This document shows positions 18,201 to 37,568 of a stretch of 38,365 nt of DNA, one piece after another. The notes beneath the pieces are model-generated. The model saw only the letters and a list, made by a program, of their open reading frames with translations. It searched no databases and had not been told where the DNA came from. Every line of letters begins with the position of its first letter. Within the stretch, counting starts at the first letter, position 1. The stretch is taken from contig JABABQ010000074.1 in NCBI GenBank assembly GCA_014238155.1, forward strand, positions 1-38,365, written 5' to 3'. The position numbers and the translations under genes are program-made. This stretch comes from Rhizobiaceae bacterium (GTDB lineage Bacteria > Pseudomonadota > Alphaproteobacteria > Rhizobiales > Rhizobiaceae).

Positions 18201-20158
18201 CCATCTATGTCGGTATCGTTGGCCAATACGTCAATGACTATGGTTGCGTCTTCCAGCACAACGTCACTGTCGGCGAGAAGTCGAGGCGCATCATTGACCG
18301 AATTCACAACCACTGTGAAGGTGGAACTGTCGATACCGCCGTTACCATCACTGATTGTATAAGTGACTGTGTCGGTTCCAAAATATTCGCTGTTTGGGGT
18401 GTAGTTCAGCGTATTATCTGGATTGACGGTGACGCTGCCATTGTTGGCACTGACGGAAATGACACTGAGCGAATCTCCATCAATATCTGAGGCCAGAGCC
18501 AAGGCATCAATATTGCTCAAAGTTGTGTCTTCGTTGGTGGTTCCCGTCGCAACGGAACCGGTCACAGGAGCGTCATTAACTGGCAGAACACTGATTGCAA
18601 TCGAACTGTCAGTGATATTTCCACTGGTATCGGAAATTGTATAGGCGATGACATCAGAGCCGTGGAAATTGGGGTCTGGAATATAATCCAGTGTTCCGTC
18701 GGCATTGATTGTCGCTGTTCCGTTATTGGCAATCGCACCGGTTACGGTCAGCGAGTCGCCCTCCGGGTCGTAGGCTGCATTTAATACATTGATGCCGAAA
18801 AGACCGACATCTTCCGGGGTGCCGACAGAAGGTGCAATACCTGCAAAAGGCGTTTCGTTTGCGGCAGCCGGGCCGCCAGCACCGGCATCAATTGCAGCGT
18901 CCTGCGCCAGGTCCACGCTTGATTTGGAAGACGACTTGCTCTGATTTGAGCCGGATCTCTGTGAGAGGTCGATGACGGCAGCGGAGTCTTCCAACAGCAG
19001 GTCATCGTCTTCGTTTTCTTCCTCATCGGTGACCGGTCTGTCGCTGCTTAAATCAAGCAGGTTTTGCGCCTCGCTGCCGGTGGAACTATTGTGTCCGCTC
19101 TCACCGCTCAAACTGCCAATTTGAGCCAGTTCCAGAGCCTTGGCTTTGTCAATGTTGTTGGACTGGTTGGCGGTTGATTTTGCGGTCAGGGAAAAGCCCC
19201 GAGCCGACAGCGCTGCTTGGCTGGCAACCGAATATAGCACGGCTGCGGCAGCAGCATCGCTTTGAGACCCGGCAGGGATGACGCCACGATTCAGGACATC
19301 GCGGGTATCAAGGCCTTTTTCCGACTGAATGATCCACTTGAACTGAGTGGACATGACTTGCCCGGTGGAAGTGGCGATGGACACCATGACGGTGTGAGTT
19401 TCACCATCTCCTCCGTCGCTGTTTAGTACCCCCTCGATGTGCATGCGGCTGGCGTTATAGTTCAAACCTGGAGGCAGCCCGGAAACTGATACTGCAACAT
19501 TGTCGTCGATCAGCAGGTCAGACAGATACCCCCCGATATCGAGGCTCACATGGGTATCCATGCCGTCAAATTGATTGGGAATAAGTTGACTGCCCAGCTC
19601 TTGAAGCGGCGTTTGGTTCTCGATGCGAATCTTCATGACCTGGGTCGACCAATGACCGTCATGAACAACGAAAGTTATATTGTCGCGAGGTGCCTGGGAC
19701 TCATCAGGTCGGTATGAAAGGTCTCCATCGGAGAGGATCTCAACTTCACCATGAGCCGCCCAGGCTTTGGTGACAATGGGGGCCTCCCCACTGAATTCCG
19801 GCAAATATCTTGCAACTGCAATGCGCGTGGCACCTTCCTGCAAAGCGGTTACCGGTTGTATGTAGTCGCTTGTGTCCTGTTCATTTGGGAAGAACTCGTT
19901 TTCGGCAGGCGTCAGACTATCCTGGCTTGCGGCGCTGGAGAGTTGCCCGGCAGAGTCGATTGAAATACTCAGGTCGTCAAATCGAATTTCCTGGCAATTG
20001 TCCAACACATCATAATCGGCATCAGTCCAAAGCAGCGCTGAACTTCCGGGTGTCAATTTCCATTCAAAGTCTGTTGAATTACCCGGCACAGTGTAGACGG
20101 AGCGACCGTCCACGACTTCCAGGGTTTGACCAAATTTAGCAGTTTCCCGTGGCGGCAT
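6296..20158 (-). CDS. giant tandem-repeat surface/secreted protein (Ig/cadherin-like repeats, LamG, EF-hand-like C-terminus)
   Basis: One uninterrupted 4620-residue frame, probably an adhesin or matrix protein. From the N-terminus: a leader of about 120 residues without an obvious signal peptide; a putative Ig segment (about 190-270, SGLPPGLNY); and a Ser/Asn/Gln and acidic linker (about 300-435). Residues 436-3676 hold five short (about 95) and seventeen long (about 107) repeats. The long ones share the pattern [32 protein letters not shown]. Three larger inserts of about 300 residues interrupt them (about 1880-2206, 2531-2856, 3276-3566). A LamG-like domain (about 3677-3920), a cadherin domain (about 3922-4012) and WDG-type repeats (about 4016-4412) follow. 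The C-terminus has calcium-binding DLNRDGEI and [12 protein letters not shown] loops. Type I secretion is likely, but no transporter or classic GGxGxD repeats are visible here. Confidence 0.93.
10616..14521 (-). repeat. two-copy tandem super-repeat of about 1.95 kb inside the giant gene
   Basis: Two consecutive blocks (14521-12569 and 12568-10616) have the same internal order: a large insert domain beginning NDxPVxDLSDxEN, an atypical repeat with ANGFED or GNGFED and FTGEPE, then two standard 107-residue repeats. Counting from the N codon of each block's opening motif to the next gives 1953 bp for both blocks. The copies have diverged clearly at nucleotide level, so the duplication is not recent. 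Single 321-bp units at about 10.62-11.24 kb are much more alike and look younger. Confidence 0.8.
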
Positions 20159-23451: not shown

Positions 23452-24114
23452 CTATGCCTTGCTTGGTACCGGACAGGCGATTCCAACACCCGCCAGATTG
23501 CAATATCCTTCAGGGTTCTTGGCCAGATATTGCTGATGATATTCTTCGGCAAAATAAAACGTCGGAGCGTCCAGAATTTCGGTGGTAATCGCACCTTTCC
23601 CGATTTTCGCCAGCGCTTGAGCATAGGCATCTCTGGAGGCCTCTGCCTGCTGTTTCTGCTGCGATGTCGTGGTGTAGATTCCGGAACGGTATTGGGTGCC
23701 GGTATCGTTGCCCTGGCGCATACCCTGCGTCGGATCATGGGTTTCCCAAAACAATTTCAGCAGTTTTTCAAATGAAATCTGATCGGGATCGTAAACCACG
23801 CGCACGGTTTCGTTGTGCCCGGTAAGGCCAGTGCAGACTTCGTTATAGGTTGGATTGGGCGTTGTGCCGGATTGGTATCCTGCCGCAGTGACCCACACCC
23901 CCTGCTGCTCCCAGAAAAGCCGTTCGACACCCCAAAAACATCCCATGCCGAAAAACACTTCTTCCCTGCCGTCGGCGGCAGCGGCGACGGCGGCAATCGG
24001 TCGTCCGTTGACAAAGTGGTTCTCGGCAGTCGGCAGCGGCTCCGGCCGACCTGGCATGACGGTCTCGGCAGTTGGCATTTTCATTTTGCTGGTCAGTCTG
24101 TCGATCAGGAACAT
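23452..24114 (-). CDS. msrA: peptide-methionine (S)-S-oxide reductase MsrA
   Basis: A 220-residue methionine sulfoxide reductase A, which repairs the S-epimer of oxidised methionine using thioredoxin. The catalytic motif GCFWG is at 58-62 with nucleophile C59. YHQQYL and the C-terminal segment with C-N-L-A and I-A-C-P supply likely resolving cysteines. The N-terminal extension before the catalytic domain ([10 protein letters not shown]) matches the E. coli MsrA style of about 212 residues. I chose the ATG at 24114, which has AAAGG upstream. A start at 24192 would run into the preceding spacer. Flanked by a small membrane-protein gene 31 bp upstream and the YjbR-family gene 8 bp downstream, it sits in a three-gene operon. 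Confidence 0.95.
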
Positions 24115-24145
24115 GGGAAAGCCTTTCTTATTTTCAGTTTGCGTC

Positions 24146-24481
24146 TCAGCGTCCGGCAAATCTTCCATAAGGATTTTCACGCCGCTGGCCAAATTTCAAC
24201 AAAATCATAGCCACCAGAAAGAAAATCAACCAGCTGGGAAGTTTGAGCAGGTTTAACAACACCGGATCCCACAGATAGGGATGAGACCATGTCAGAACAA
24301 GTTCGTGGGTAGAATCCAGTGATTGTGGACTGATGGCGGCCCAGGAACCGGCAAGAGAGGTCAATATCATTTCCGAAGCAGTTATTGATTTGGTAATGTC
24401 GAGCACTGCCAGCACCACGGCCAGTGCAAGCACAAACAATCCGATAATCTTAAACAGAAAATGAAACACCCGGATGCCCAC
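24146..24481 (-). CDS. small membrane protein of unknown function
   Basis: A 111-residue protein with two strong hydrophobic segments, about residues 8-30 ([16 protein letters not shown]) and 80-98 ([12 protein letters not shown]), joined by a polar loop and ending in a basic tail ([14 protein letters not shown]). I recognise no named family with certainty; similar small proteins occur in alphaproteobacteria. The longest start is GTG at 24481. A second GTG at 24469 sits at a better distance from the AAAAAGGGG ribosome site and may be the real one. It is followed 31 bp later by msrA, suggesting cotranscription and perhaps an envelope stress context. Confidence 0.7.
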
Positions 24482-24776: not shown

Positions 24777-24866
24777 GGAGAGGTGGCCGAGTGGTCGAAG
24801 GCGCACGCCTGGAAAGTGTGTAGGCGGGTGACCGTCTCCAGGGTTCGAATCCCTGTCTCTCCGCCA
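24777..24866 (+). tRNA. tRNA-Ser (GGA anticodon)
   Basis: A 90-nt class II tRNA. The acceptor stem GGAGAGG pairs with TCTCTCC (last pair G-T). The D-arm region is GGCCGAGTGGTCGAAGGC. The anticodon stem CACGC/GTGTG encloses loop CTGGAAA, giving anticodon GGA (reads UCC and UCU). A long serine-type variable arm follows, then the T-arm GGGTTCGAATCCC. Discriminator G and the CCA end are encoded. No duplicated 3' end suggesting an integrated element was seen nearby. Confidence 0.97.
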
Positions 24867-25193: not shown

Positions 25194-28100
25194 TCAGTGT
25201 TTCACATTGAAGGTCACAGTGTGGACGGCCGTATTTCCCTTGGACTTTTCAACCTTTTTGGCCAGTTTGAAGGAAATACCACGCGTTGCCGGCTTGTTGG
25301 ACGTCGCGGCAATGGCTTTTGCGGCTTCAACAGACAGTTTTTCAACGCCTAGCCCCTTTCTGCTGCAATAGATAATCAGGGTTTCGCTGTGGCCCGGTTC
25401 ATCGAACTCGATGTGTCCAGCGTCTTGCAAGGGAATTCTCTTGGCTTGTTTGGCACGCAACCAAGGATCTCCAACCAACTCCGGCGGGAACACCTCCACA
25501 TTGCCACTGGACTCCACATACAGGATCTGCATTTCACAGTCGTGATTACTTTGAACAGTAAACGCAAGCTTCTCGCCAACCTTGACATTGGTGCTTGCCA
25601 CTTTGAGCGAGAGTTCCAGCTTGTCTCCGTCAACATATTCCTTCTGCTGATACTGTGGTACAATGGCTTTGTAGGTATCTGCAGGAGCAACGACCTTTTC
25701 GACCGGTCCGGCTTCATATGGTTTTTCAGCATGAACTGCTTTCACCGTTTCCACATATTCTTTTTTTGCAACTTTCTTGCCGTATTGCGTTTGGTGATTC
25801 GAAATATGCTGTACCGTCAGCGGATCAAGGCCGGTTAGCGCTTTTTGCAAATACGGAAACTGCTGTTCCACTTCAAATCGGGGAACTTTCGCACCGCCTT
25901 CGAGTTGAAGAATTTTCTGCATGGCAAGTTGCTGGACGGAAGGATCGTTGATGCGGAGTACCGCCGACCTAAATTCATCGGCCTCCATATCGAACTCTGC
26001 TGAAAATTCTTCGAGATTTAAGTTGTCTTCGTAAAGATCCGCGTACCAGGTAACGATTTCCTTGTTGCCAGGTGCAACACGACTTTTTTGACGACCGTTA
26101 ATTGCCTTTTCCGTCGCGCCGATTTGTTCGAGACTGCGAACGAACCGGTCTTTGTCACGATCGTAAAGTTTGTCCATTTCGACCTGTTCGATGTACATAG
26201 ACAGCAGGAATTTGGATTGATCAACGTCGAATTTGTTGGTTGTCTGGATATGCTGGCGCATAGTGTCCAGCTTGGTCAAAATTCCATCTGCATGGCAATC
26301 AATACACGATCGGCCGTTTATGATGGTTGGTGCCTTGTCCTTGGGACGTTGTTGGTAGGAAACGATCTTCTCTGGACCTTCATCAATCCTGTTACCTTTA
26401 TTGTCAGACAGATAGTAGCCCTGCATTCCATTGGGCAGCGAGAAGATCATTTCGCCACCATCATGCTCGAACGGCTTCAAATGCAGTGCCAGTGGCACGT
26501 TGTCTTCAGGCCCATGCGGAAAATCACGCAAGCTTTGTGAACCAAAACTTCCAGCAAAATCATAAGACTTCCAATAATATCCGCCTTGCGGAAGATCGTG
26601 TCTCTCCACCATTCGGTTATTTGCCGAGACGCCAGACGCGCCGCGATCAAAAGCTGCACGAGCAACATCACCCCGATCAATATTACGCTCAACGTTAATA
26701 CCAAGGCGTTGTTCAAGCTCGCGAATGTGTTTCGGTAAATTGAGTAGTGCATGATAAATTGCCGGACGCGAGGAATTCGCCATAAACCAGCCAGATCGCA
26801 GAATTGGCAATACTGTCCTGGTCTCTTTTGTCAGCGCAGAAAGGGTCGGATCGCTGTAGGGATCAACACCGTAGGGATAGGCATTTACCAACACGTCCCA
26901 TTGGTATTCCTCCCAACCGAGATCCCGAATATCAATCCGGACCAAAAGATCCTTGGTGTTGTCGACAGGTTCCGGCACGACAAGGCTGGTGCCCAGTGAC
27001 ACCGAGTTCAACATCTTGTTGAAACCAGCAACATACAATGTTTGGCGTTTGTTATACTGCTCGTCGGTCTCACAGGGAAAGCGTCCGTTGTAATGGTTGC
27101 GAAAAGTGAAATAGCGAATATATTCTCGGTCCAGCTCATCCTGCTTACCCAGATCGTTCAGTGCAGCACGGACAAACTCTTCGCGTGGAATTACTTTGCG
27201 CATACGCGGTGGTTCAGCAATGGATTGCGGAGCGGATTGGGCCGATGCGCTGGTAGCTCCAAGACTGGATATCCATTCACCCAACCGGGCAACTTCGGCA
27301 GCAGACGGCTGCGAGCCCAACGGCATGCGACCCGATGTAATCGACGTATAAAGACGTGAAGATGCAGGATCACCCGGTGTCACAAATGAAGCGTCAGCAG
27401 CAATTGCAGCAAGCGAACCTGCAGGAAAACTACCTTGAGAGCTTTGTCCCAATCCGTGACAGTTTCGGCAGAATTTACCGATGAAATCGTCAGCGTCAGC
27501 AGCGAGCTGTCCTCCTTGTTCAGATTGTGAAGCGGTCGCGGAACTGACAGCACCGGTGCAGGTTTGCACTTCAAGTTTTGGCGGGGCGATCTTGACTTCT
27601 GCGCCTTTTAAATAGGCAAATATTGCCAGTCGATCGTCGTCAGAGAGCTTCGCTGTCTGCTTCGTGATCTTTCGCATAACAGGATCAGTAATCGGCTGAC
27701 CATTTAGCTTCTTTGCTTCGACAAGAACTCCCTTCGTGAACACATCTGGGGAGGATAATCCGTTCATTACAGCCGCAGTAATTGCCGGAGCATAAGCCCC
27801 GGTGAGCCCATTAGCGCCTTCCAATGACTTCTCTTCCAGGGTCCCATAAGTCGTGGATCGTGGTGTGTGACAAGATCCGCAAGCGCCAACACTTTCAACG
27901 AGGTATTTGCCGCGAGACAATTGGTCTTCGGTGCCAGGCACCCACCTGCGCGTGCTAAAATTGCGCCGCTTCCAGAAAGACATGGTCGAGTTCATGTTGT
28001 AGGGAAAAGAAACTTCATGCTCGGGAACAGAATTATCAGACCGAGACAGGCCCATGATATAGGCTTTAACATCGAGGACATGCTCTGGCTTCATCCCTGC

Positions 28101-28487
28101 ATAGTTGGTGTAGGGGAAAACTGGAAAATAATGGCTTCCATCGGGCGAGATGCCGTTCAACATCGCATTGAGAAAATTGGCATTTGTCCACTTGGCCAAC
28201 CCATTTGAACTGTTCGAGAGATTTGGCGTATAAAATGTACCAACGTAGGAATCCATTTTTAATCCGCCGCTCAGCAGATCTGGATCATCGGCGGTGCCGT
28301 GGCAGGAGCCACAGGCACCGGCATTGTATAAAATTTCGCCGTTCTTCAAATCGGGTTTGTATTGTTGATAAGAACCTTGTTCAAAAAGCTCGGCGGATTG
28401 AACCGACAGCGACATGGCAGGAATCGTCAGAATTCCTACAAGTGCCGCTAAAATAGTACGCTTGTATTTGTGTGCCAGTTTAATCAT
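25194..28487 (-). CDS. exported multiheme c-type cytochrome with C-terminal DUF4384-like domain
   Basis: A 1097-residue exported protein with four CxxCH heme c sites at about C59-H63, C203-H207, C340-H344 and C728-H732. A signal peptide covers about 1-32 (cleavage after VQSA). The first 300 residues resemble the diheme cytochrome subunits of membrane alcohol dehydrogenases (GTFYTPNLS, FPYTNYAGM, VLDVKAYIMGL). Residues about 330-410 resemble planctomycete-type cytochrome modules, with a probable distal Met in RMPLG. The middle (430-940) is unassigned and holds the fourth heme. The last 145 residues (GDKLELSLKV..., VEVFPPEL) look like DUF4384, a domain often attached to caspase and kinase proteins. 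I chose the ATG at 28487 over a GTG three codons upstream because GGTGGATGAG precedes it. It is the last gene of the caspase-OmpA-flavocytochrome operon. Confidence 0.87.
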   Translation of the reverse strand: MIKLAHKYKRTILAALVGILTIPAMSLSVQSAELFEQGSYQQYKPDLKNGEILYNAGACGSCHGTADDPDLLSGGLKMDSYVGTFYTPNLSNSSNGLAKWTNANFLNAMLNGISPDGSHYFPVFPYTNYAGMKPEHVLDVKAYIMGLSRSDNSVPEHEVSFPYNMNSTMSFWKRRNFSTRRWVPGTEDQLSRGKYLVESVGACGSCHTPRSTTYGTLEEKSLEGANGLTGAYAPAITAAVMNGLSSPDVFTKGVLVEAKKLNGQPITDPVMRKITKQTAKLSDDDRLAIFAYLKGAEVKIAPPKLEVQTCTGAVSSATASQSEQGGQLAADADDFIGKFCRNCHGLGQSSQGSFPAGSLAAIAADASFVTPGDPASSRLYTSITSGRMPLGSQPSAAEVARLGEWISSLGATSASAQSAPQSIAEPPRMRKVIPREEFVRAALNDLGKQDELDREYIRYFTFRNHYNGRFPCETDEQYNKRQTLYVAGFNKMLNSVSLGTSLVVPEPVDNTKDLLVRIDIRDLGWEEYQWDVLVNAYPYGVDPYSDPTLSALTKETRTVLPILRSGWFMANSSRPAIYHALLNLPKHIRELEQRLGINVERNIDRGDVARAAFDRGASGVSANNRMVERHDLPQGGYYWKSYDFAGSFGSQSLRDFPHGPEDNVPLALHLKPFEHDGGEMIFSLPNGMQGYYLSDNKGNRIDEGPEKIVSYQQRPKDKAPTIINGRSCIDCHADGILTKLDTMRQHIQTTNKFDVDQSKFLLSMYIEQVEMDKLYDRDKDRFVRSLEQIGATEKAINGRQKSRVAPGNKEIVTWYADLYEDNLNLEEFSAEFDMEADEFRSAVLRINDPSVQQLAMQKILQLEGGAKVPRFEVEQQFPYLQKALTGLDPLTVQHISNHQTQYGKKVAKKEYVETVKAVHAEKPYEAGPVEKVVAPADTYKAIVPQYQQKEYVDGDKLELSLKVASTNVKVGEKLAFTVQSNHDCEMQILYVESSGNVEVFPPELVGDPWLRAKQAKRIPLQDAGHIEFDEPGHSETLIIYCSRKGLGVEKLSVEAAKAIAATSNKPATRGISFKLAKKVEKSKGNTAVHTVTFNVKH

Positions 28488-28553
28488 CTCATCCACCCTG
28501 TTTACCCTATTATCCCGTTTGCACCGTTGAGCTGGCCGAAAATGCCAGTTTGA

Positions 28554-29810
28554 TTATCTGAATTCAAACAACTCAAATTTCACCGATGACAATTTCTTGC
28601 CCATATTTTTCAAACCTTTGGTGATCGCCAGCCGCAGCGGCGGCGGACCACAAAACATCATTGAAGCGCCATCTATCTCGAAATCAACCAAATCCGTCAG
28701 TTTTTGTGCATCAAGCCGTCCCTCTTCGTCAGAAGAGAAAAGAATGTAAGAGAATTTGTCTACCTCTTCCACTTTGCTAAGCAACGCCTGTTGATCAACC
28801 GCTTCACCTGCATCGCGTACGCAATGGAACAGACAGACTTCCTGCGAGAGCGAATTATCCAGTTCCTGTGCCATGGCCAAAAACGGCGTTACACCAATGC
28901 CGCCAGCAAGCCACAATTGTCTCGAACTTTTGGAATTAAACTTGAAGCGGCCATAGGCGCCTTGAACTTGCATCTGGTCACCCACGGCAACGTTTTCATA
29001 AAGACGCTTTGTGAAATCCCCGGACGCCTTGATTGCAAAACTCAATCCGCCAACTTCATCCCGACCGGCAATAGTGAACGGATGTGGTTCTCGCAGTCCA
29101 GACTTCTTTATGTTTATCACGGCAAACTGGCCAGCAACACTTTTCAAGGGTCTGGATACCGGCTTTGCTGATATCAGTGCGGAGCCTGCTTGTTGATCAA
29201 CGGATGTCACTTCATATTTACGCTTCCGTAAAAACGGTGCCAGTTGCGTGTAAAGGAAACTTGCAACGCCAATTACGGCAAATAAATTCAGGTAACCAGC
29301 TAACAATGCATTGCCATCAAAAGGCCGCTTGATGAACATTTGATGGAACGTGATAAAGACAAACGCAACACCAATGAACCGGTGGCTTTGACGCCAGATG
29401 TGGTAGGGTACTTCATATTTGGTGAAGGGAATTTTTTTCACCAGGCTGAAAGCAATCAGGACCAGTAGGCTCCAAAATCCGATAGTAGCCGCGTCCTTAG
29501 CGAGATCATTCAGCCCGCCAGTCAGAACTTGCCCCTTAAAATTGGGGGTGACAAAATAGTGCACCAAAATTAGTGCCAGCGCGATTTTACCGGTGGTTTT
29601 ATGAGTGCGGTACATACGATCCAGACCGCCGAACATGCCCTCAAAATATCTGGGACGGGTCGCCAAAAATTGGTTTAACGCCATCGCGACAAAAGCCACA
29701 GAAGACGCAGCCAAAGAGCCCCAGGTTGAAAGTCCAGTATGACTTGCAGCGGGTATTGATAATAAAAAGGTAACAATCAACAACAGATAAACACAGATCG
29801 TACCGACCAT
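28554..29810 (-). CDS. ferric-reductase/NADPH-oxidase-like flavocytochrome b
   Basis: A 418-residue inner-membrane oxidoreductase. The N-terminal half has about six or seven hydrophobic segments and two histidine pairs spaced like bis-heme b ligands (H70 and H84; H143 and H156). The C-terminal half is a cytosolic FAD/NAD(P) module with FAD-binding PHPFTI (242-247), GAYGRF, NAD(P)-binding GGIGVTPF (303-310) and FCGPPP (386-391). Relatives move electrons from cytosolic NAD(P)H through two hemes to the outer face, reducing Fe(III), oxygen or a partner protein. The adjacent exported tetraheme cytochrome is an obvious candidate acceptor. The start lies 11 bp after the OmpA gene and the end 66 bp before the cytochrome gene. 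Confidence 0.9.
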   Translation of the reverse strand: MVGTICVYLLLIVTFLLSIPAASHTGLSTWGSLAASSVAFVAMALNQFLATRPRYFEGMFGGLDRMYRTHKTTGKIALALILVHYFVTPNFKGQVLTGGLNDLAKDAATIGFWSLLVLIAFSLVKKIPFTKYEVPYHIWRQSHRFIGVAFVFITFHQMFIKRPFDGNALLAGYLNLFAVIGVASFLYTQLAPFLRKRKYEVTSVDQQAGSALISAKPVSRPLKSVAGQFAVINIKKSGLREPHPFTIAGRDEVGGLSFAIKASGDFTKRLYENVAVGDQMQVQGAYGRFKFNSKSSRQLWLAGGIGVTPFLAMAQELDNSLSQEVCLFHCVRDAGEAVDQQALLSKVEEVDKFSYILFSSDEEGRLDAQKLTDLVDFEIDGASMMFCGPPPLRLAITKGLKNMGKKLSSVKFELFEFR

Positions 29811-29821
29811 AATCAGACTTT

Positions 29822-30496
29822 CTAGTACGTGCTGATGTTAATGATTTCGACGCGCCGGTTTTCCGAAGCCGTCGGATCGTGTGTGTTTTTGAGTTTGTGT
29901 TCTCCAAAGCCAATGGGAACGAGTCGCTCGGGACTGATATCACCAATTTGAACGACCAGTCGGGCAACGGAATCTGATCTTCTTTGCGAGAGTATCTGGT
30001 TGAAGTCATCAGAGCCCTTGGCGTCAGTATGCCCCCCCAATATGACGCGTGTTTCAATTAACAATGGATGATTTAGCGCTTTGGCGAGTTCCATGACCTG
30101 AGCAATTGACGTCCCGTTCACTTCGGCTGAGCCAAACTCGAAACCAATTTCGAAATCAAGCTTTGGCAAGTCATATTTCTTCACCACATCGACAATTTTT
30201 GATAGGTCCTTGGAACTGTAGGTCGGAGCTTTGTAGTCATTCTTTTTAGCCTCAGAATTGACCGTAAACTTGATGCCACGCGTGTTGCCTAGTGAACCAA
30301 GAAACCCTTTGTCGCCATTGGACATGGCCGACTTTGACGCACCTAACGAACGGGTCAGACTACGGGTGAGGGGCTTTTTCTTGGCCAATTTCTCAACAAT
30401 GTCTGATTGATTGACTTCTGCAGCTTGAGAAAAAGTGGTTACTCCCAACAACAAAATAAGGGAGCTAACGGTCGCAGCACCAATTTCCCTAAACAT
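29822..30496 (-). CDS. OmpA-family (peptidoglycan-associating) exported protein
   Basis: A 224-residue exported protein with signal peptide 1-26 (cleavage after FSQAA). A low-complexity Lys/Ser/Arg-rich segment follows (about 35-95), then an OmpA C-terminal domain (about 113-224). The peptidoglycan-binding hallmarks are GHTDAKG (155-161), the QRRSDSVARL helix and ENRRVEI (211-217). It has no lipobox Cys and no N-terminal barrel, so it is probably a periplasmic or outer-membrane-linked tether. The ATG at 30496 has GGGAG seven bases upstream and was preferred to the frame's first codon at 30523, which overlaps the caspase stop. It lies 29 bp after the caspase gene and 11 bp before the flavocytochrome gene. 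Confidence 0.92.
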   Translation of the reverse strand: MFREIGAATVSSLILLLGVTTFSQAAEVNQSDIVEKLAKKKPLTRSLTRSLGASKSAMSNGDKGFLGSLGNTRGIKFTVNSEAKKNDYKAPTYSSKDLSKIVDVVKKYDLPKLDFEIGFEFGSAEVNGTSIAQVMELAKALNHPLLIETRVILGGHTDAKGSDDFNQILSQRRSDSVARLVVQIGDISPERLVPIGFGEHKLKNTHDPTASENRRVEIINISTY

Positions 30497-30525
30497 GATT
30501 TTCTCCCGTTCCTTCATCAACATTG

Positions 30526-32298
30526 CTAGTTCTTAAAATAGAAATTCTTCCTTAGCCCGGAATTCGTCCACGGCGATTGCTGTTGGTCGGTTGCTACAAA
30601 AACGTCTGAGCGCACCCGTTTCAGCATCGCCTCGATTTCCAGCTTTGGAGTACCAATGTGGTTCAAAAGCGCTGTGGTGAACGGGCTGTTTTCTCCGTCA
30701 CCGTCAAGCGCTACTTCTCCTGGTGCTGTGGCAAACCCAATCAGCAGGTTGCCCGAACTTGAAGGGCTCGCAAGACCTCTGCCAATAAATGCCGAGCGGG
30801 TTGCACCAACTGAACGAGCAAACCTTCTGGAAAGTGGATTGTCTCTGCAAGCGTCAATCAGGGCGATTGAAACGCGTCCTGGCTGATCAACAAATTGCAA
30901 TATTGATGACAGCTGAATGGTTTCAAAGTCGAGTGCGGTAGAATCTTCCAGTTTGGCGTCAATGGGAATGAGGTAATTGGAGCCTTTCACCTGCATTGCG
31001 TGACCGGCATAGAAAAATAATGCAGCTTCGGAATTTGGCAGTTCTCGTACAAAATCTCGAATGGTTCGTTCCATTGCGGATTTGCCGCCATCAAGCCCAA
31101 TGATGACGATGAAGCCGAGTTGCTTGAGTTTTTCGGCGACACGGGCAGCATCGTTTTTCGGGTTTGGCAATGCCGTTGTATGTTGATAAGCCGAATTCCC
31201 AAGCACCAGGGCAACCCGCTTTCCGATCTTTTCTGGTTTGTCTTCTTCACCCACCGGGCTCGGGTTTTTTATGACCGCAATATCAATCGTTTCGGGTTTT
31301 TTCGTGGGTTTGTCTTTCGGCGTGATATCGTTGTCTGGAGGACCAAATGTTGGAACTTCCGCTGCCGCCAGGTAAGTAACTTTGACCCAACCTTCCACCG
31401 AAGGTGCAGGCTTTACCCGATACCAATCCTGGTATTTCCCGGTAACCACCAAATTGGTTCCCTCGCGCAATCGCGCGACTTCGAGATAGTTGCTGCCCGG
31501 ACCTTTTCGCAGGGCCACGAAATCAAATCCAGCTTTTGCCAATCCAAATATTCTTAACTTCGTGCCATTATCGACTTCGCTAATTGCAATCTCTGGTTTG
31601 GGAACAACAGGCGTTGCAGGTTTTACCGGCTGTACGTAGGCAATGCCTGGGGTAACGTAGCGACTATACAACCAACCAGATCTACCGGATTGTATGCGGA
31701 CATTGTACCACCCCTTGCGCTTGCCAATAATCTCAAATGGAGTGCCCTGGGTGAGACGCTTGATCTCTGTTCTGGACGTGCTCGGTCCTGACCTAAAAGA
31801 AACATAGCCATCACCATTGGATAACAAACCAGAGACGTAACCTGGCCCGTTTGAGCTGCGGTCAATGGTAACGGGGGTTCCGCCATCGACATTCAGCTTT
31901 GTAGAGCTCAATATAGCAGATCCGTTCGTTCCGGTTACTCCGGAAGACGACCATATCAACTCGACGAACCGTTCGCCGGAATGAAAATAGCTGTCGTGAG
32001 GAATAACTCCCCGAGACTTTAATCTGCTCGCAATTGTGTTACCGCTCGACCGATTTATCCAGCCCAGGCTAATCGCATACCAACCATTATTAGAGCGAAA
32101 TACGGCTACGTTGCCGGCACTTCTAGCCAGTTGCCGAGCATAGCTGATGGCAGAATTGGGATTATCACGGCTTGCGACAACGAGCCAGGCCGCGTTTGAA
32201 CCGGGATAAATCGCTGCACGTCCAGCCAGATTGCTGGCAAATAGCAGCACCATCGCCAGTGCAATTTTTATCACCGTAGCTTTCAGAACGAATGTCAT
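30526..32298 (-). CDS. exported caspase-like (peptidase C14) protein with SPOR-like and two SH3 domains
   Basis: A 590-residue protein. A signal peptide covers about 1-28 (LAGRAA). A SPOR-like segment follows at about 35-115 (AWLVVASRDNP...YARQLARSAG). Two bacterial SH3 repeats come next, about 162-216 (VSFRSGPSTS, GWLYSRYV) and 256-312 (VALRKGPGSN, GWVKVTYL), then a Pro/Lys linker. The caspase domain (about 358-590) has catalytic H433 in FFYAGHAMQ and C484 in LIDACRDNP, both intact. SPOR and SH3 modules usually bind peptidoglycan, so a wall-associated cysteine protease is likely. The ATG at 32298 has GGGAG upstream. It is the first gene of a four-gene operon and is preceded by an AT-rich promoter region with a repeated hexamer. 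Confidence 0.92.
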   Translation of the reverse strand: MTFVLKATVIKIALAMVLLFASNLAGRAAIYPGSNAAWLVVASRDNPNSAISYARQLARSAGNVAVFRSNNGWYAISLGWINRSSGNTIASRLKSRGVIPHDSYFHSGERFVELIWSSSGVTGTNGSAILSSTKLNVDGGTPVTIDRSSNGPGYVSGLLSNGDGYVSFRSGPSTSRTEIKRLTQGTPFEIIGKRKGWYNVRIQSGRSGWLYSRYVTPGIAYVQPVKPATPVVPKPEIAISEVDNGTKLRIFGLAKAGFDFVALRKGPGSNYLEVARLREGTNLVVTGKYQDWYRVKPAPSVEGWVKVTYLAAAEVPTFGPPDNDITPKDKPTKKPETIDIAVIKNPSPVGEEDKPEKIGKRVALVLGNSAYQHTTALPNPKNDAARVAEKLKQLGFIVIIGLDGGKSAMERTIRDFVRELPNSEAALFFYAGHAMQVKGSNYLIPIDAKLEDSTALDFETIQLSSILQFVDQPGRVSIALIDACRDNPLSRRFARSVGATRSAFIGRGLASPSSSGNLLIGFATAPGEVALDGDGENSPFTTALLNHIGTPKLEIEAMLKRVRSDVFVATDQQQSPWTNSGLRKNFYFKN

Positions 32299-32645
32299 CC
32301 CCGATCTCCCACTGCCCCCACCAGATAATGTTTCACAATGCCAATAGTTACAAGCCTGATTGAAATTCGATCCGTGTTTTTTTACACATCGAACAGGTTA
32401 GATGCATTTTGGGCGCTATCGAATATCGAATTAATGAAAAAAAAATTTGATAGTTTGTAAATTCATAACTTCTTATCGAAATTAAATTTATTTTACAATT
32501 TTGAATTAGATCAAAAGTAACTTAATTAATGTTCATATTATTAAACGCAAAATTTGTTTTCGTTATAATTATTAGTATAAATTTTTACATTATTATAGGA
32601 ATCGATTTTATTACATAAAAACGACACGATCTCGTCTCATCTGGT
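32299..32645. promoter_or_regulatory. AT-rich intergenic region before the caspase/redox operon
   Basis: This 347-bp spacer lies between two minus-strand caspase genes. Its centre, about 32420-32620, is extremely AT-rich compared with everything else in the window, with runs of A and T and many TTAAT/ATTAT steps. Such DNA is typical of promoters bound by nucleoid-associated silencers. It should contain the promoter of the caspase-OmpA-flavocytochrome-cytochrome operon. A weak hairpin before TTTTT near 32620-32635 on the minus strand might end the upstream caspase transcript. Confidence 0.6.
32366..32480. promoter_or_regulatory. cluster of five ATCGAA/TTCGAT hexamers, including a bulged inverted repeat
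   Basis: ATCGAA occurs at 32388-32393, 32418-32423, 32425-32430 and 32475-32480, and its complement TTCGAT at 32366-32371. The last three direct copies share the longer form TATCGAA, two of them in tandem. The first two face each other around GTGT and ACAC and a T-run (32366-32393), forming a hairpin with a 2-nt bulge. The hairpin lies about 70 bp upstream of the caspase start at 32298. Five copies in 115 bp is unlikely to be chance and suggests a regulator-binding array. Confidence 0.5.
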
Positions 32646-34085
32646 TTAATTTACACTGAAACTTGGAATAATCGACACCAACCCCAAGTGATGAAGGGTC
32701 TCCAATGTTAAACCGTTTGGTTTCAATTGGTTTCTGGTTTGATAATCGACAAGCGATTTCTTTGATCCCGAACCGAAATCCCCATCAATGTCACCGGAAT
32801 AAAAGCCTTCATCCTGCAGTTTTCGCTGTATTGTCTGGAATTGTTTGGTTTCCAATACCACAGTAAAATCAGAGCCTTGTAGGTTAACTCTTGATTGTTG
32901 GTGGCCCCGTGACTTTGCCGCCATCAAAAGTTTGGTGCCTTTTACGAAATCCTGTTTCACTCCCTGGCCGTTGATATACATGACCCCAAGATTGTTGATG
33001 GCATGGATATAGTCTTGATCTGCGGACCGCTTGTAATGAGGGATCGATTCCTTGTAGCGGCCATTTGAATCATAAGCCCGAGCGAGATTGTGAAGCAGGC
33101 GCGGATGATCCGGTTCGGTGACCAATGCCTTCTTGCAGGCGACAATCGCTTGTTTTGATTTAATGGCGTCAAAGTCGACGCCCTTTATGCTAAGATTGTT
33201 GTAGGGCTCAACGGCCAGATAGTCACATTGGCTGGGTTCTGGGACGCGAAAATAAAACTCGTCAGTGAGTTTGACGAGATATTCAGGTTTCTGGCCACCA
33301 TTTGTATCCCTGATTACATCAGCCGCGACTCCGCGCAACATCCGGCCAATTTCCATGCCGGGTTCTTCAATCCGCTTTAAAAGTGCCCTGGTAAATGGAC
33401 TGTTGTCGCCAGTGCCATCTTCGGCAACTTGACCGGGCGCGGCGGCATAGGAGATCACAGTGCCATAGGTCTCAAGGTCGGTCTGTGTAAGGTCGTCCTC
33501 ATCTAAAATATTGCCCATTTGGCCAAGGCCCGAACCGACAAATCGAGACGCCCCCTCAGATTTTGCAGAGGCCTTGAGCAATTCGACAAATGGATTGTCC
33601 CTGCAGGCATCAAGAACAATAATCTTTGTCTTTGCCAAGTCGTCCATCAGGTTGACGAACTTTGCCAATTCAAATGTCTCGTTTACTACGGAAGAAATAG
33701 TGTTCAGCTGCGCATCGATGGGAATGAGATAGTTGGCACCGTCAATCTGGACGCTGTGACCGGCATAATACAGCACAGCGACATCGGCTCCTTTCAGCTC
33801 CTTATACAACCGATATTCGAGCTTCTCAAAGTCACCAACACTGGGATTATCCAGTCGAATAACTGCAAACCCCAACCGTTCCAGGGCATCGCCAACGTCA
33901 TCGGCATCTTTGACTGGATTAGGCAGAGCAGCAGTATGCTGATAGTCGCTAACCCCAATGACCAGCGCGATCCTTTTCTGATCCCCATTATAGAGGCTTT
34001 TCTGCAGCGCATGGGCGGCCGAAAACCAAATAGACGCCATTGCCAAGGCAGCAATTGCCAACTTCAACAGGTAGTTCTTGCGCAC
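32646..34085 (-). CDS. exported caspase-like (peptidase C14) protein with Sel1/TPR-like and peptidoglycan-binding domains
   Basis: A 479-residue protein. A signal peptide covers about 1-27 (KNYLLKLAIAALAMASIWFS then AAHA). The caspase domain (about 36-285) has catalytic H110 in LYYAGHSVQ and C161 in VLDACRDNP, both intact. A region with TPR/Sel1-like helices follows (about 300-395, LARAYDSNGRYKESIPHY and LGVMYINGQGV). A C-terminal peptidoglycan-binding domain (about 415-470, IQRKLQDEGFYSGDIDGDFG) ends the protein. I chose the GTG at 34085, with GGAG eight bases upstream, over a GTG at 34115, because it gives a proper signal peptide and does not overlap the upstream SH3 gene. It starts 16 bp after that gene, so the two are probably cotranscribed. 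Confidence 0.9.
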   Translation of the reverse strand: MRKNYLLKLAIAALAMASIWFSAAHALQKSLYNGDQKRIALVIGVSDYQHTAALPNPVKDADDVGDALERLGFAVIRLDNPSVGDFEKLEYRLYKELKGADVAVLYYAGHSVQIDGANYLIPIDAQLNTISSVVNETFELAKFVNLMDDLAKTKIIVLDACRDNPFVELLKASAKSEGASRFVGSGLGQMGNILDEDDLTQTDLETYGTVISYAAAPGQVAEDGTGDNSPFTRALLKRIEEPGMEIGRMLRGVAADVIRDTNGGQKPEYLVKLTDEFYFRVPEPSQCDYLAVEPYNNLSIKGVDFDAIKSKQAIVACKKALVTEPDHPRLLHNLARAYDSNGRYKESIPHYKRSADQDYIHAINNLGVMYINGQGVKQDFVKGTKLLMAAKSRGHQQSRVNLQGSDFTVVLETKQFQTIQRKLQDEGFYSGDIDGDFGSGSKKSLVDYQTRNQLKPNGLTLETLHHLGLVSIIPSFSVN

Positions 34086-34101
34086 ATTTATCTCCAACAA
34101 T

Positions 34102-35355
34102 TCAACACCCTTCACCGGAACTCAAACAGGCGGGACCATTGGCAATTGCACTTTTGCAAACAGGCCTGCCCAGCGGGTTGATGACCGGTTTTTTCACCTT
34201 CTTGCTCGCCGATTTCCGTTTCTTTACCTGCGCTTTTGCCAGTTTTATCTGGGACTTGTTGGCAGCCTGAAAAGGCAATTGGATGCCAGGGCCCTTGGGA
34301 TAGTTCCAGCAGATTTCGGATGTGGCGCCCTGAAAAACCGCTTCATTCCCATTCGTCTCGTAACTTTGCCACAATTTACCAACCCGGGCACATTCTTTCC
34401 TTTGTGACCGGGTCAAAAAGCATCCGTCCACAGGATGATAGTTGAGTTTGCAATCGCTCCACGGGCGGTTTCTTTTGAAGCAGCGGGATACATTTTTCGC
34501 CATGTCCGCAAAGGATTTGCGCTGGATACGCCGACCGGTATCGGGAGAATATTCTGTATAGACAACGACACCCGCCTCAGCGCCGTATCGCTGTTTATAC
34601 TCTTTGAGTAGCCGCTCGGTGATCTTGAACCATTGCTGCCCTCTTCCTTTGTAGGCCACTTCCGTTGCGGAAAATTGATCAAAAACAACGCTTTGAAGAA
34701 CCGAGATCCGGGCTGCATTGCTGAACCCACGATCCCTGAGGATCTTCTCCGCGCGCCAAAAGTCCTTTATTCGTCGATCCATTTCGTCGCCACCTGCCAC
34801 CCGCTTCGACTGACCGCCTCCACATTCGACCAATTGCATAAAGACCCACCCCCAATTTCGGTTTCGGCCCTGGTATTTGCCAACGGCGTAACCCCAGGGG
34901 CGACCTCTGGAATCATTTTTTGTTCGGACCACAGATATCTTGCGTCCGTTGCGCAATCGATTGACGACTTTGCCGTTTGGGCGATCCCGAACATTGAGAG
35001 AACTATCATTTGGATCTGCAATGATACATTCTTTACCGCTGGAGTTTGACGTGGATCGAGTTGAAGTTCCGCTGCAATTAACCGATTGCATAAAGACCCA
35101 CCCCCAATTGCGGTGCTGTCCCTGGTATTGACCTGAGGCATGGCCCCATGGACGGCCTCGAGGGTCGTTCTGAATTGCTCCGATGGTTACACTCCGCCCG
35201 TTTCTGAGCTGGTTTATGACGGTACCATTGGGACTGTCACGGACATTGAGTGACGTATCGCTGGCATCCTCGATGACACAGTCTCGAGCTTCAGACGCTG
35301 AGACCAAAACCAAAACGAACAGCGGAGCCAAAGCCACCAGCAACAAATTTTTCAC
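34102..35355 (-). CDS. exported protein with two cysteine-bracketed SH3 repeats and an unknown C-terminal domain
   Basis: A 417-residue protein with a signal peptide (about 1-23, ending SASEA). Two SH3-like repeats of 69 residues follow (C26-C94 and C110-C178). Each begins and ends with Cys and shares SLNVRD.PNG, GRPWG and NWGWVFMQ. At DNA level they are a clear duplication (35280-35074 and 35028-34822). The remaining 230 residues contain helices, six or so further cysteines and a very basic KKRKSASKKVKK segment, and match no family I recognise. I chose the GTG at 35355 because GGGGA precedes it; a TTG at 35367 is the alternative. It is the first gene of the pair with the TPR-caspase and is divergent from the third caspase, so it may be a partner or substrate of these proteases. 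Confidence 0.8.
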   Translation of the reverse strand: MKNLLLVALAPLFVLVLVSASEARDCVIEDASDTSLNVRDSPNGTVINQLRNGRSVTIGAIQNDPRGRPWGHASGQYQGQHRNWGWVFMQSVNCSGTSTRSTSNSSGKECIIADPNDSSLNVRDRPNGKVVNRLRNGRKISVVRTKNDSRGRPWGYAVGKYQGRNRNWGWVFMQLVECGGGQSKRVAGGDEMDRRIKDFWRAEKILRDRGFSNAARISVLQSVVFDQFSATEVAYKGRGQQWFKITERLLKEYKQRYGAEAGVVVYTEYSPDTGRRIQRKSFADMAKNVSRCFKRNRPWSDCKLNYHPVDGCFLTRSQRKECARVGKLWQSYETNGNEAVFQGATSEICWNYPKGPGIQLPFQAANKSQIKLAKAQVKKRKSASKKVKKPVINPLGRPVCKSAIANGPACLSSGEGC

Positions 35356-35537
35356 GAATCCCCGCAATGTTTAGAGCTACCCATCAGCACGAAGTTAAAC
35401 GACCTCAGTTGCGGATCGCAATGGTTTTTATGATTTTCAGCCAGACAATGCCTCGCGCATGACGGCGTCTAACCGACTGGCAATACAGCAATACTTCAGC
35501 TACTAAATACGGCCTATGGTAAGTAAATGGGTGCGGG
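35356..35537. promoter_or_regulatory. divergent promoter region between SH3-protein and caspase genes
   Basis: This 182-bp space serves two outward-facing genes of the caspase group. It contains a small palindrome, TTGCG-GAT-CGCAA (35409-35421), followed by a T-rich stretch. It lies roughly 55 bp upstream of the minus-strand start and 116 bp upstream of the plus-strand start, a position suitable for a shared operator. The hexamer found upstream of the other operon is not repeated here. No certain -10/-35 elements could be assigned. Confidence 0.4.
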
Positions 35538-37568
35538 ATGTTCAACAGGCCACTAAAAACCAGCCGTAAAACGGAGTATACGCTTTTCTTCGCCATGGTC
35601 TTGTGCGTGACCCTATTGTTCGTCCAGTTCTTCACGGTGAGCCAAGCTCAGGCAGGTAAGTTTGCACTTGTGGTGGGTAATGACAGCTACGACAATGTGG
35701 CCGATCTGCAAAAGGCGGTGAATGATTCTCAGGTAATTGGCGAAACGCTGGAATCCCAGGGCTTTACGGTAATCCGGGGAACCAACCTGACGCGCCGGAA
35801 TATGAATCAGACCATCGCAAGGTTTACCGGACAGTTGCAGCAGGGGGATGAAGCTGTATTTTTCTATGCCGGGCACGGTGTTGAAATCGCCGGCCAAAAC
35901 TTTTTGCTCCCCACTGATATTCCAGCCGCAGGGGCCGGTTCCGAGGATTTTGTCAAATCTGAATCGGTCGCGGTATCGCGCGTTCTGGACAGCATTCGAT
36001 CGCGCGGGCCGCGGGTGTCAATATTAATACTGGATGCCTGCCGCGATAATCCATTTCCAAAGAATGGCACGCGCAGCCTTGGCGGTACGCGTGGCTTTGT
36101 CGGGATGAATGCGCCCAAGGGCACGTTCATCATGTATTCGGCCGGCGTTGGTCAAACCGCACTCGATCGGCTTTCAGATAACGACCCCCATCCCAACTCT
36201 GTGTTTACCCGTAGTCTGGTACCCTTGTTGAAAACTCCGGGTTTGCCAATCACGAAGCTCACGCGGCAATTGCGCCGCGATGTAGAGGCCCTTGCGCAGA
36301 AGGTTTCTCACGACCAGCGCCCGGCCTATTACGATGAGATTACCGGCGACTTCTTTTTCAGGGCAAAGCTGGAAACAACTGCGCCACCAAATACGGATAC
36401 AACCGCCAATCCTCCTACGCCGCCTAAACCGGTTATCACGCAAAATGATAATGCCCGACTGGCCTGGGACATTATCAAGGATTCCAACCGGATTGGTGAT
36501 TTTGAAGCTTTTGTCGATACATTTGGCAGTTCCTTCTTTGCCAAGCTTGCTGCCAACCGCATTAAGGAATTGAAAGACAAAGTCGCGATAGTCAAGCCAG
36601 TTCAACCCAAACCCAAACCCAAGCCCAGGACGGTCGTTACGCCGAAGCTGCCTTCCGGCCCTGAAGTCGTAATTTTGCCATCGAAATTCTGGCCCATTGG
36701 CAAATGGCCCGAAGGCCTGGTATCCGATGAAAACAGTCTTTGGGTCGCCGAAAGTGGTCTGCGTCAGATCGCCCAGGTGAGCAAGACAGATGGTCACATT
36801 ATTAAACGCATCAAGGTTGGGCGGCTTCCGGTCGATATGGAAATTGTACCCGATGGCACAATCTATTCTTTAGTATACACCAGCCGGTTGGTTTGGTCAC
36901 AGCCCAAGCGCGGCAAAGGCCGTTCTTTCGCTCGATTGCGCCATTATCCTGAGGCGATGGAGAGCGACGAAAGGGCAATCTGGGTTCTCGTTCTGCCAAA
37001 TGGTTCTTCTGAATCGGCAAAAGTCGTCCGACTTAACCGGAGAAATGGAGATGCCATTGGCTCCCACATCCTGCCTCAAAACGCTAGCGAACTGGTGCTC
37101 CATGATAACGTTCTTTGGGTCGTCCACGGCCTTGGACCGGGTGGAGGCATGGTATCAAAACTTGACCCGGACACGCTGGCCGATCTTGGATCGGTTCGCA
37201 CGCTGGATTCGATTTCCAAGATTGATGCCAACAGCTATGGTGTTTTCGCGGCTGGTGGCATTTGGAATCAGTCGGGCGTGGTGGTTAAATTCGACCCTCA
37301 TACTGGTGATCAGGTGGGTCGGGTCACGCTGCCCAGCCAGTTCATCTATTCAATGGCGGTCAGTCACGACTATGTCATCGTGGCAGGTTATCAGGGGCGT
37401 ATCTGGATCATCGATGCCCAAGATATGACTGTGCGGCGCCAGATTGATCTGGAAAACGGTCCATTTCAACCAAGCCACATCCTGGCTGAAGACAACAGGC
37501 TGTATATTACGACTCACGGTGGTGGTGACCAGGGTGCCGTTGTGGTGGTGGACAACTGGCGACCCTGA
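35538..37568 (+). CDS. exported caspase-like (peptidase C14) protein with C-terminal beta-propeller-like domain
   Basis: A 676-residue protein. An N-terminal hydrophobic segment (about 14-39, ending SQAQA) is a signal peptide or anchor. The caspase domain (about 40-275) has catalytic H113 in FFYAGHGVE and C168 in LILDACRDNP, both intact. A linker rich in Pro and Lys (about 285-390) includes a short helical segment and a run of PKPKPKP. Residues about 395-676 repeat a beta-strand pattern (SLWVAESGLRQIAQV, VLWVVHGLG, RIWIIDAQD, RLYITTHGG) like a six- or seven-bladed YncE/NHL-type propeller, suited to ligand or protein sensing. It is transcribed away from the other two caspase genes. The ATG at 35538 has a GGGTG site upstream. 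Confidence 0.9.
   Translation: MFNRPLKTSRKTEYTLFFAMVLCVTLLFVQFFTVSQAQAGKFALVVGNDSYDNVADLQKAVNDSQVIGETLESQGFTVIRGTNLTRRNMNQTIARFTGQLQQGDEAVFFYAGHGVEIAGQNFLLPTDIPAAGAGSEDFVKSESVAVSRVLDSIRSRGPRVSILILDACRDNPFPKNGTRSLGGTRGFVGMNAPKGTFIMYSAGVGQTALDRLSDNDPHPNSVFTRSLVPLLKTPGLPITKLTRQLRRDVEALAQKVSHDQRPAYYDEITGDFFFRAKLETTAPPNTDTTANPPTPPKPVITQNDNARLAWDIIKDSNRIGDFEAFVDTFGSSFFAKLAANRIKELKDKVAIVKPVQPKPKPKPRTVVTPKLPSGPEVVILPSKFWPIGKWPEGLVSDENSLWVAESGLRQIAQVSKTDGHIIKRIKVGRLPVDMEIVPDGTIYSLVYTSRLVWSQPKRGKGRSFARLRHYPEAMESDERAIWVLVLPNGSSESAKVVRLNRRNGDAIGSHILPQNASELVLHDNVLWVVHGLGPGGGMVSKLDPDTLADLGSVRTLDSISKIDANSYGVFAAGGIWNQSGVVVKFDPHTGDQVGRVTLPSQFIYSMAVSHDYVIVAGYQGRIWIIDAQDMTVRRQIDLENGPFQPSHILAEDNRLYITTHGGGDQGAVVVVDNWRP

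What the first reader, a model, noticed from the sequence alone, without database searches (positions are those of the whole stretch)
25194..37568. Exported caspase proteases clustered with a trans-membrane electron-export chain
Seen: three caspase-fold genes, an SH3 protein, an OmpA protein, a flavocytochrome b and a tetraheme cytochrome c lie together, nearly all with signal peptides. Known: caspase homologues are common in alphaproteobacteria but their roles are mostly unknown; ferric-reductase-like proteins pass NAD(P)H electrons outward. Inference: the locus may be a periplasmic redox-sensing or redox-triggered proteolysis system, acting on the envelope or on cell fate.
Basis: partly seen in the sequence, partly recalled or inferred. 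Interest (0 to 1): 0.85.

Follow-up and report, generated by a model that had tools for sequence, protein, structure and literature searches.

The report
Electron-export genes paired with exported caspases
In many alphaproteobacteria, genes for an NADPH-oxidase-like membrane protein and a four-heme cytochrome sit, in a conserved block, beside genes for secreted caspase-type proteases, which suggests that electron flow or gas sensing at the cell envelope controls, or works together with, these proteases.

Summary
In detail: seven genes (25194-37568) encode a tetraheme cytochrome c with C-terminal DUF4384, a NOX-type flavocytochrome b, an OmpA protein, three C14 caspases with intact His/Cys motifs, and an SH3-like protein; six look exported, one is membrane-bound. 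The only C14 and DUF4384 matches found in this genome lie here. None of the 66 has a caspase without the NOX gene. An annotated Neorhizobium plasmid repeats caspase-OmpA-flavocytochrome-cytochrome at 37-47% identity. The protease type changes while the redox pair stays. So this is a conserved envelope module. Most likely NAD(P)H electrons pass through the NOX-type protein to the cytochrome, whose fourth heme sits in a domain without a clear solved relative (weak similarity to gas-binding cytochrome c'-beta), and the proteases read out its state. Association strong; electron route likely; gating of proteolysis is inference.

The parts
25194..28496 (-). P0001: exported tetraheme cytochrome c (CxxCH at 62, 206, 343, 731); residues about 45-299 (first two hemes) like the cytochrome subunit of fructose/alcohol dehydrogenases; central domain (about 425-900, fourth heme) without clear solved relative; C-terminal DUF4384 (971-1047)
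   Evidence: Pfam; conservation; structure
28554..29810 (-). P0002: NOX-type flavocytochrome b (H70/H84, H143/H156, FAD motif HPFTI at 243, NADPH motif GIGVTP at 304)
   Evidence: Pfam; PDB relatives; motifs
29822..30523 (-). P0003: exported OmpA C-terminal domain (peptidoglycan-binding type) protein
   Evidence: Pfam
30526..32298 (-). P0004: exported caspase, two SH3 domains (SPOR-like start below cut-off) + C14 with YAGH / DACRDNP; its only Cys is the catalytic one
32299..32645 (-). AT-rich intergenic stretch before the P0004-P0001 gene run; possible promoter region (no promoter shown)
   Evidence: sequence; the scan lists no promoter-like site in it
32646..34115 (-). P0005: exported C14 caspase + TPR/Sel1-like + PG_binding_1
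   Evidence: orthologue 47% over 456 aa in the Neorhizobium module
34102..35367 (-). P0006: exported SH3-like protein with Cys-containing C-terminal half; overlaps the P0005 start; relatives stand directly upstream of P0005-type caspases in three other loci
35538..37568 (+). P0007: exported C14 caspase + propeller-like C-terminus, divergent from P0006

Best explanation
This is one example of a conserved envelope module of alphaproteobacteria that joins an electron-export line to exported clan-CD proteases. The NOX-type flavocytochrome takes electrons from cytoplasmic NAD(P)H and carries them over two b hemes to the periplasmic side (inferred from motifs). The adjacent tetraheme cytochrome c, rather than O2, is its likely acceptor: hemes one to three relay, and the fourth sits in a conserved domain that may bind a small ligand. 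The redox or ligand state of the cytochrome is then passed, perhaps through its DUF4384 domain, to caspase or CHAT proteases held near the peptidoglycan by OmpA, SH3 and PG-binding domains, and sets when they cut envelope proteins. Shown: gene content, motifs, conserved linkage, exchange of protease type. Inferred: electron route (about 0.7), gating of the proteases (about 0.35), anchoring (about 0.6).
Confidence: 0.42

Rival explanations
1. Envelope damage repair without gating: the NOX-cytochrome line removes ROS or NO (or reduces a damaged substrate, as MsrPQ does), and the exported caspases independently clear damaged proteins; they share a stress regulon.
For: NOX-type proteins can deliver electrons to periplasmic partners other than O2; weak c'-beta similarity of the fourth-heme domain; OmpA and PG-binding parts fit envelope upkeep; the cytochrome also occurs without caspases.
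Against: Explains less well why proteases of different type are kept so close and why none of the 66 full-flank loci has the protease without NOX; DUF4384 shared between cytochrome and some caspases.
Confidence: 0.27
2. Reductant supply: the line keeps the lone catalytic cysteine of the exported caspases reduced in the oxidising periplasm, comparable to the DsbD/DsbG system (recalled).
For: Catalytic domain has one Cys in 92 of the 92 cluster-3 caspases with a recognised motif (95 examined) and in 25 of 35 of cluster 16 (36 examined); odd totals of Cys in 87 of 95 and 29 of 36 (proteins under 350 aa left out). P0004 and mature P0007 have only the catalytic Cys.
Against: Control: 21 caspases from genomes without the module look the same (single Cys in the catalytic domain 19 of 21, odd total 17 of 21). 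Mature P0005 has two further Cys. Hemes do not usually reduce thiols directly (general knowledge).
Confidence: 0.13
3. Biological conflict or cell death: a periplasmic caspase system triggered by envelope attack (phage, competitor, predator), with the redox line as sensor.
For: Caspase type and number vary (five in L131), accessory domains are diverse, P0006-like genes are multiplied around the Neorhizobium module; PADLOC's caspase model matches the caspases (E 4e-7 to 2e-16).
Against: No other defence component recognised among the nine proteins scanned beyond OmpA-part matches to ZorB and a TPR match; largely fixed gene order in most Rhizobiaceae loci.
Confidence: 0.1
4. No functional link: neighbourhood by descent or hitchhiking.
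For: Many of the loci are related Rhizobiaceae; L034 and L070 have no protease within 10 kb.
Against: Linkage persists at 35-40% identity with rearranged order and different protease families; 36 C14 genes in about 25.4 Mb of six carrier genomes gives about 0.03 expected per 23 kb.
Confidence: 0.06

Closest known systems
Bacterial NOX (SpNOX; Hajjar et al. 2017, PMC5676040)
   Same: H-X12/14-H pairs, FAD and NADPH motifs, fused dehydrogenase; full-length similarity to PDB chains that I recall as SpNOX
   Different: Stands beside a dedicated tetraheme cytochrome, OmpA and caspases; superoxide production untested
MsrPQ periplasmic methionine sulfoxide repair
   Same: Ferric-reductase-type membrane protein that feeds a periplasmic redox partner
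   Different: P0002 has its own FAD/NAD domains; the neighbour is a multiheme cytochrome, not MsrP
Metacaspase operons of Asplund-Samuelsson et al. 2012 (PMC3501461)
   Same: Multi-caspase operons in Alphaproteobacteria; OmpA in 14 predicted metacaspase operons
   Different: 'cytochrome' and 'redox' do not occur in its main text; its supplements were not seen
Cytochrome subunit of Gluconobacter fructose/alcohol/aldehyde dehydrogenases (triheme by recall)
   Different: Central domain with the fourth heme and DUF4384 added; no dehydrogenase gene in the block
Cytochrome c'-beta / P460
   Same: Best structural match of the central domain; beta-sheet heme fold (passages)
Prokaryotic orthocaspases/metacaspases (C14)
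   Same: Caspase domain and His/Cys motifs
   Different: Exported, with SH3/PG-binding parts and tied to redox genes

Membership tests
NOX family (bacterial) | two H-X12/14-H pairs at least 20 residues apart | tested here: met
   H70/H84, H143/H156; 75 of 75 orthologues
[quoted passage not shown]
   HPFTI 243, GIGVTP 304; 74 of 75 have both (motifs)
NOX family (bacterial) | 3 to 7 transmembrane helices | tested here: met
   hydropathy finds 5 segments, two of them overlapping; crude method, not TMHMM
NOX family (bacterial) | NADPH-dependent superoxide production | not testable with these tools
   needs enzyme assay
Peptidase C14 (caspase) | caspase domain | tested here: met
   P0004, P0005, P0007; 37 of 37 (window's three included) and 19 of 19 module proteins scanned
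Peptidase C14 (caspase) | catalytic His and Cys motif | tested here: met
   YAGH and DACRDNP in all three window proteins; in relatives recognised in 92 of 95 cluster-3 and 35 of 36 cluster-16 proteins
Peptidase C14 (caspase) | protease activity | not testable with these tools
   needs assay
MsrQ | ferric-reductase membrane domain without fused FAD/NAD domain | tested here: not met
   P0002 has both domains; MsrQ and Fre are separate proteins (passage)
Cytochrome c'-beta / P460 | beta-sheet heme c fold | tested here: inconclusive
Dehydrogenase-associated triheme cytochrome | three-heme fold | tested here: inconclusive
Dehydrogenase-associated triheme cytochrome | cognate dehydrogenase gene next to it | tested here: not met
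   none among P0002-P0007
Known anti-phage defence system | components of a described system | tested here: inconclusive
   PADLOC: only a single-protein caspase model, ZorB-like matches of the OmpA part and a TPR match

The most novel reading that the evidence does not exclude
A bacterial redox-caspase switch: an alphaproteobacterial NOX-type enzyme feeds electrons to a multiheme, ligand-sensing cytochrome c in the periplasm, and that cytochrome activates or restrains exported caspase/CHAT proteases, a cytochrome c-caspase partnership in the compartment corresponding to the mitochondrial intermembrane space. (No homology to mitochondrial cytochrome c or the apoptosome is claimed.)
Probability: 0.3. 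Interest if true: 0.93.

Novelty: new variant of a known kind. Interest (0 to 1): 0.74.

Why it matters
What bacterial caspases do (function unknown for 70 of 217 predicted metacaspase operons) and what bacterial NOX enzymes feed are open questions. A conserved four-gene block gives each a testable partner: a dedicated cytochrome for the NOX, and a redox line for exported caspases. It occurs in genera with cultured strains (Ensifer, Rhizobium, Shinella, Roseibium, Hoeflea; titles), so a gene removal can decide it. If the cytochrome does control the proteases, it would be a cytochrome c-caspase link in relatives of mitochondria.

Tried and rejected
Sequence search of the central domain (A1) in the PDB: nothing convincing, best E 0.45; excised sub-domain (A5): best E 1, otherwise short CxxCH matches. 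Foldseek for the central domain: no match with E <= 0.001. These absences do not show a new fold.

hhalign of the cytochrome DUF4384 against the cluster-3 C-terminus was weak (probability 16%, E 0.0016 for one comparison; a control with another cytochrome region gave E 0.59), so I rely on the Pfam counts.

Single-cysteine caspases as a sign of the module: rejected as specific after the control set (21 caspases from 20 stretches of genomes without a central-domain match in the listing).

Cytochrome C313/C475 occur together (79 both, 6 neither, 1 truncated at its start), and the six without are NOX-less loci, probably one lineage (no tree made), so not used as proof. L127-L129 could not be aligned there.

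Promoter-like sites were fewer than in shuffles; terminator-like 26 against a mean of 16.5, not interpreted. The first gene caller (longest ORF) lost true genes; replaced and checked with six-frame pieces. In one search the caller failed on L124 (no module gene recognised); L124 has the contig length of L080, where the genes are found, and was not used. My caller also dropped P0006 for its low codon score (2.6); I keep P0006 because relatives exist. Search for P0006 in 199 genomes of the order: 20 with matches, own genome included, mostly short stretches in the SH3-like half.

Literature: 10 searches; no listed paper had a title or abstract start about a NOX/ferric-reductase-cytochrome-caspase block. 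The library holds open-licence papers only. Seen: passages and section 13 of PMC3501461; outline, abstract and sections 6, 14, 16 of PMC5676040; passages of PMC6426788, PMC11928373 and PMC11031084; all others as listings only.

Rows dropped: in the counts of representatives L006, L007, L009, L010 were left out. The 80 loci are the best 80 of 121. The window is one of the 66.

Full report
WHAT IS THERE. Between 25194 and 37568 lie seven genes. On the minus strand, in order of transcription: P0006 (SH3-like), P0005 (C14 caspase + TPR/Sel1-like + PG-binding), P0004 (SH3 x2 + C14 caspase), P0003 (OmpA), P0002 (flavocytochrome b), P0001 (tetraheme cytochrome c with DUF4384). P0007 (C14 caspase with a propeller-like tail) is on the plus strand. 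With the first possible starts P0006 and P0005 overlap by 14 nt; a 347-nt AT-rich gap precedes P0004; then P0004-P0003-P0002-P0001 follow with gaps of 2, 11 and 57 nt. All have a hydrophobic N-terminus (P0006 by eye; the rest), P0002 being a membrane protein. The three caspases keep their His and Cys motifs. In this genome three C14 matches were found, all here, and one DUF4384 match, in P0001.

IS THE NEIGHBOURHOOD CONSERVED? One scan of named genomes with P0001 gave 80 loci (the best 80 of 121). Profiles run on six-frame pieces gave, for the 66 loci with at least 5 kb on both sides of the cytochrome: 59 with NOX-type gene, OmpA and caspase-fold gene within 10 kb (58 with C14; L093 with CHAT only); 4 with NOX-type gene and OmpA only; 3 with OmpA only. 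Of the four, L063 has next to its OmpA gene a 1656-aa protein ending in a CHAT domain (E 5e-47), and L076 has the cluster mate of that protein (not scanned by Pfam); L034 and L070 have none. So 61 of 63 loci with the NOX-type gene have a clan-CD protease if L076 is accepted. None of the 66 has a caspase without the NOX-type gene. After removing cytochromes above 90% identity, 34 loci with such flanks split 27, 4 and 3. The NOX-type gene is on the same strand and at most 81 nt away in 77 of 77 loci that have it. Six carrier genomes have 36 C14 genes in about 25.4 Mb, so roughly 0.03 would fall in a 23-kb stretch by chance.

Against: the cytochrome also occurs alone.

The loci are not only close copies. 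Gene order is fixed in most Rhizobiaceae loci (NOX-cytochrome-OmpA-caspase-caspase, cluster 3), but in others caspases of the DACR[DN]NP type stand upstream, downstream or divergent, in L093 a TPR-CHAT protein is neighbour (L081 has its cluster mate), and in L131 five caspases surround the block. An annotated Neorhizobium petrolearium plasmid, found separately, reads caspase family protein - OmpA family protein - ferredoxin reductase family protein - c-type cytochrome. Identities to the window: cytochrome 37.5%, flavocytochrome 44%, OmpA 38%; the caspase is nearest to P0005 (47% over 456 aa), whereas in the window P0004 stands next to OmpA. Exchange of the protease while the redox pair stays is the strongest argument for a functional link.

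Among 101 related genomes, nine have a cytochrome match that spans the central domain, as I read the listed ranges; all nine have C14 genes, against 48 of the other 92. P0002 relatives with at least 43% identity occur in six genomes, each next to the cytochrome; paralogues of about 33-36% identity occur elsewhere, and the four placed on a tree fall outside the module clade (support 0.865, 30 against 4 sequences). In an even draw of 398 genomes of the phylum the central domain was found in 3, the own genome included, all in this class.

THE PARTS. P0002 meets the published sequence filters for NOX proteins: 74 of 75 orthologues have the FAD motif, the NADPH motif and both His pairs. The best PDB relatives are the 8qt6/8qq7/8qta chains, E 8e-36 over residues 9-417 for the first; one search names them FAD-binding FR-type proteins, and I recall them as SpNOX. 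The NOX authors report that SpNOX reduces cytochrome c directly and that acceptors other than O2 are possible.

Caspases: 37 of 37 and 19 of 19 scanned proteins match C14; among the 37, accessory domains include SH3 (10), Sel1 (5), PG_binding_1, SPOR and LprI (4 each), which fits a place at the peptidoglycan. The catalytic Cys is mostly the only one in the catalytic domain, but 21 caspases from genomes without the module look alike, so this belongs to exported caspases in general.

P0006: its C-terminal half matches three proteins around the Neorhizobium block (22-24% identity, best E 1e-11). One of them ends 10 nt before the P0005-type caspase; P0006-like frames also stand directly upstream of P0005-type caspases in L096 (cut by the contig end) and L105. 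A profile seeded with these ends on eight proteins: four around the Neorhizobium block, one each in L096 and L105, and the N-termini of the CHAT proteins of L063 and L076. The part shared with the CHAT proteins seems, by eye, absent from P0006 itself. So P0006 is a candidate partner (regulator, inhibitor or substrate) of the caspases; which one is unknown.

MECHANISM. Most likely electrons go NAD(P)H - FAD - two b hemes - c hemes, and the state of the cytochrome is coupled to exported proteases. The first half rests on established NOX chemistry and adjacency; the second on linkage, protease exchange and the shared DUF4384. Nothing here shows direction (activation or restraint), ligand, substrate or outcome. 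Rivals are listed with weights.

KNOWN OR NEW. Asplund-Samuelsson et al. (passages and section 13) report OmpA in 14 metacaspase operons and multi-caspase operons in Alphaproteobacteria; 'cytochrome' and 'redox' do not occur in their main text. Ten searches of the open-licence library (call numbers under Tried and rejected) listed no account of the redox-caspase block. Families are known; the assembly appears undescribed there.

VERDICT. Observation confirmed; conserved module well supported; redox-gated proteolysis remains a hypothesis worth testing.

Noticed in passing
window 6296-20158 (-): A 4620-aa protein made of Big_9, cadherin-like and CshA repeats, probably a giant surface adhesin (Pfam).
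   Followed up: partly
window 24777-24866 (+): tRNA-Ser (GGA) about 330 nt beside the end of the cytochrome gene; a tRNA at the edge could mark an insertion site of the block.
   Followed up: no
L132 7926-9820 (also L133, L134): Paralogous NOX-type genes (about 33-36% to P0002) stand next to a 172-175 aa protein with two hydrophobic stretches and a LuxR-like helix-turn-helix end (by eye).
   Followed up: partly
L168 2999-4126, 11182-14755: Four related cysteine-containing proteins with signal-like starts surround the Neorhizobium module; part of them also matches the N-termini of the CHAT proteins of L063 and L076.
   Followed up: partly
P0001 residues 313 and 475: Two cysteines occur together in 79 of 86 cytochromes and are both missing in the six loci that lack NOX and caspase genes; one further sequence is truncated.
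   Followed up: partly
window 23452-24192 (-): MsrA-type peptide-methionine sulfoxide reductase lies beyond the tRNA; probably unrelated to the block.
   Followed up: no
L148-L167: Caspases of the order outside the module mostly have an odd number of cysteines, as if one free catalytic Cys plus disulfides (17 of 21).
   Followed up: partly
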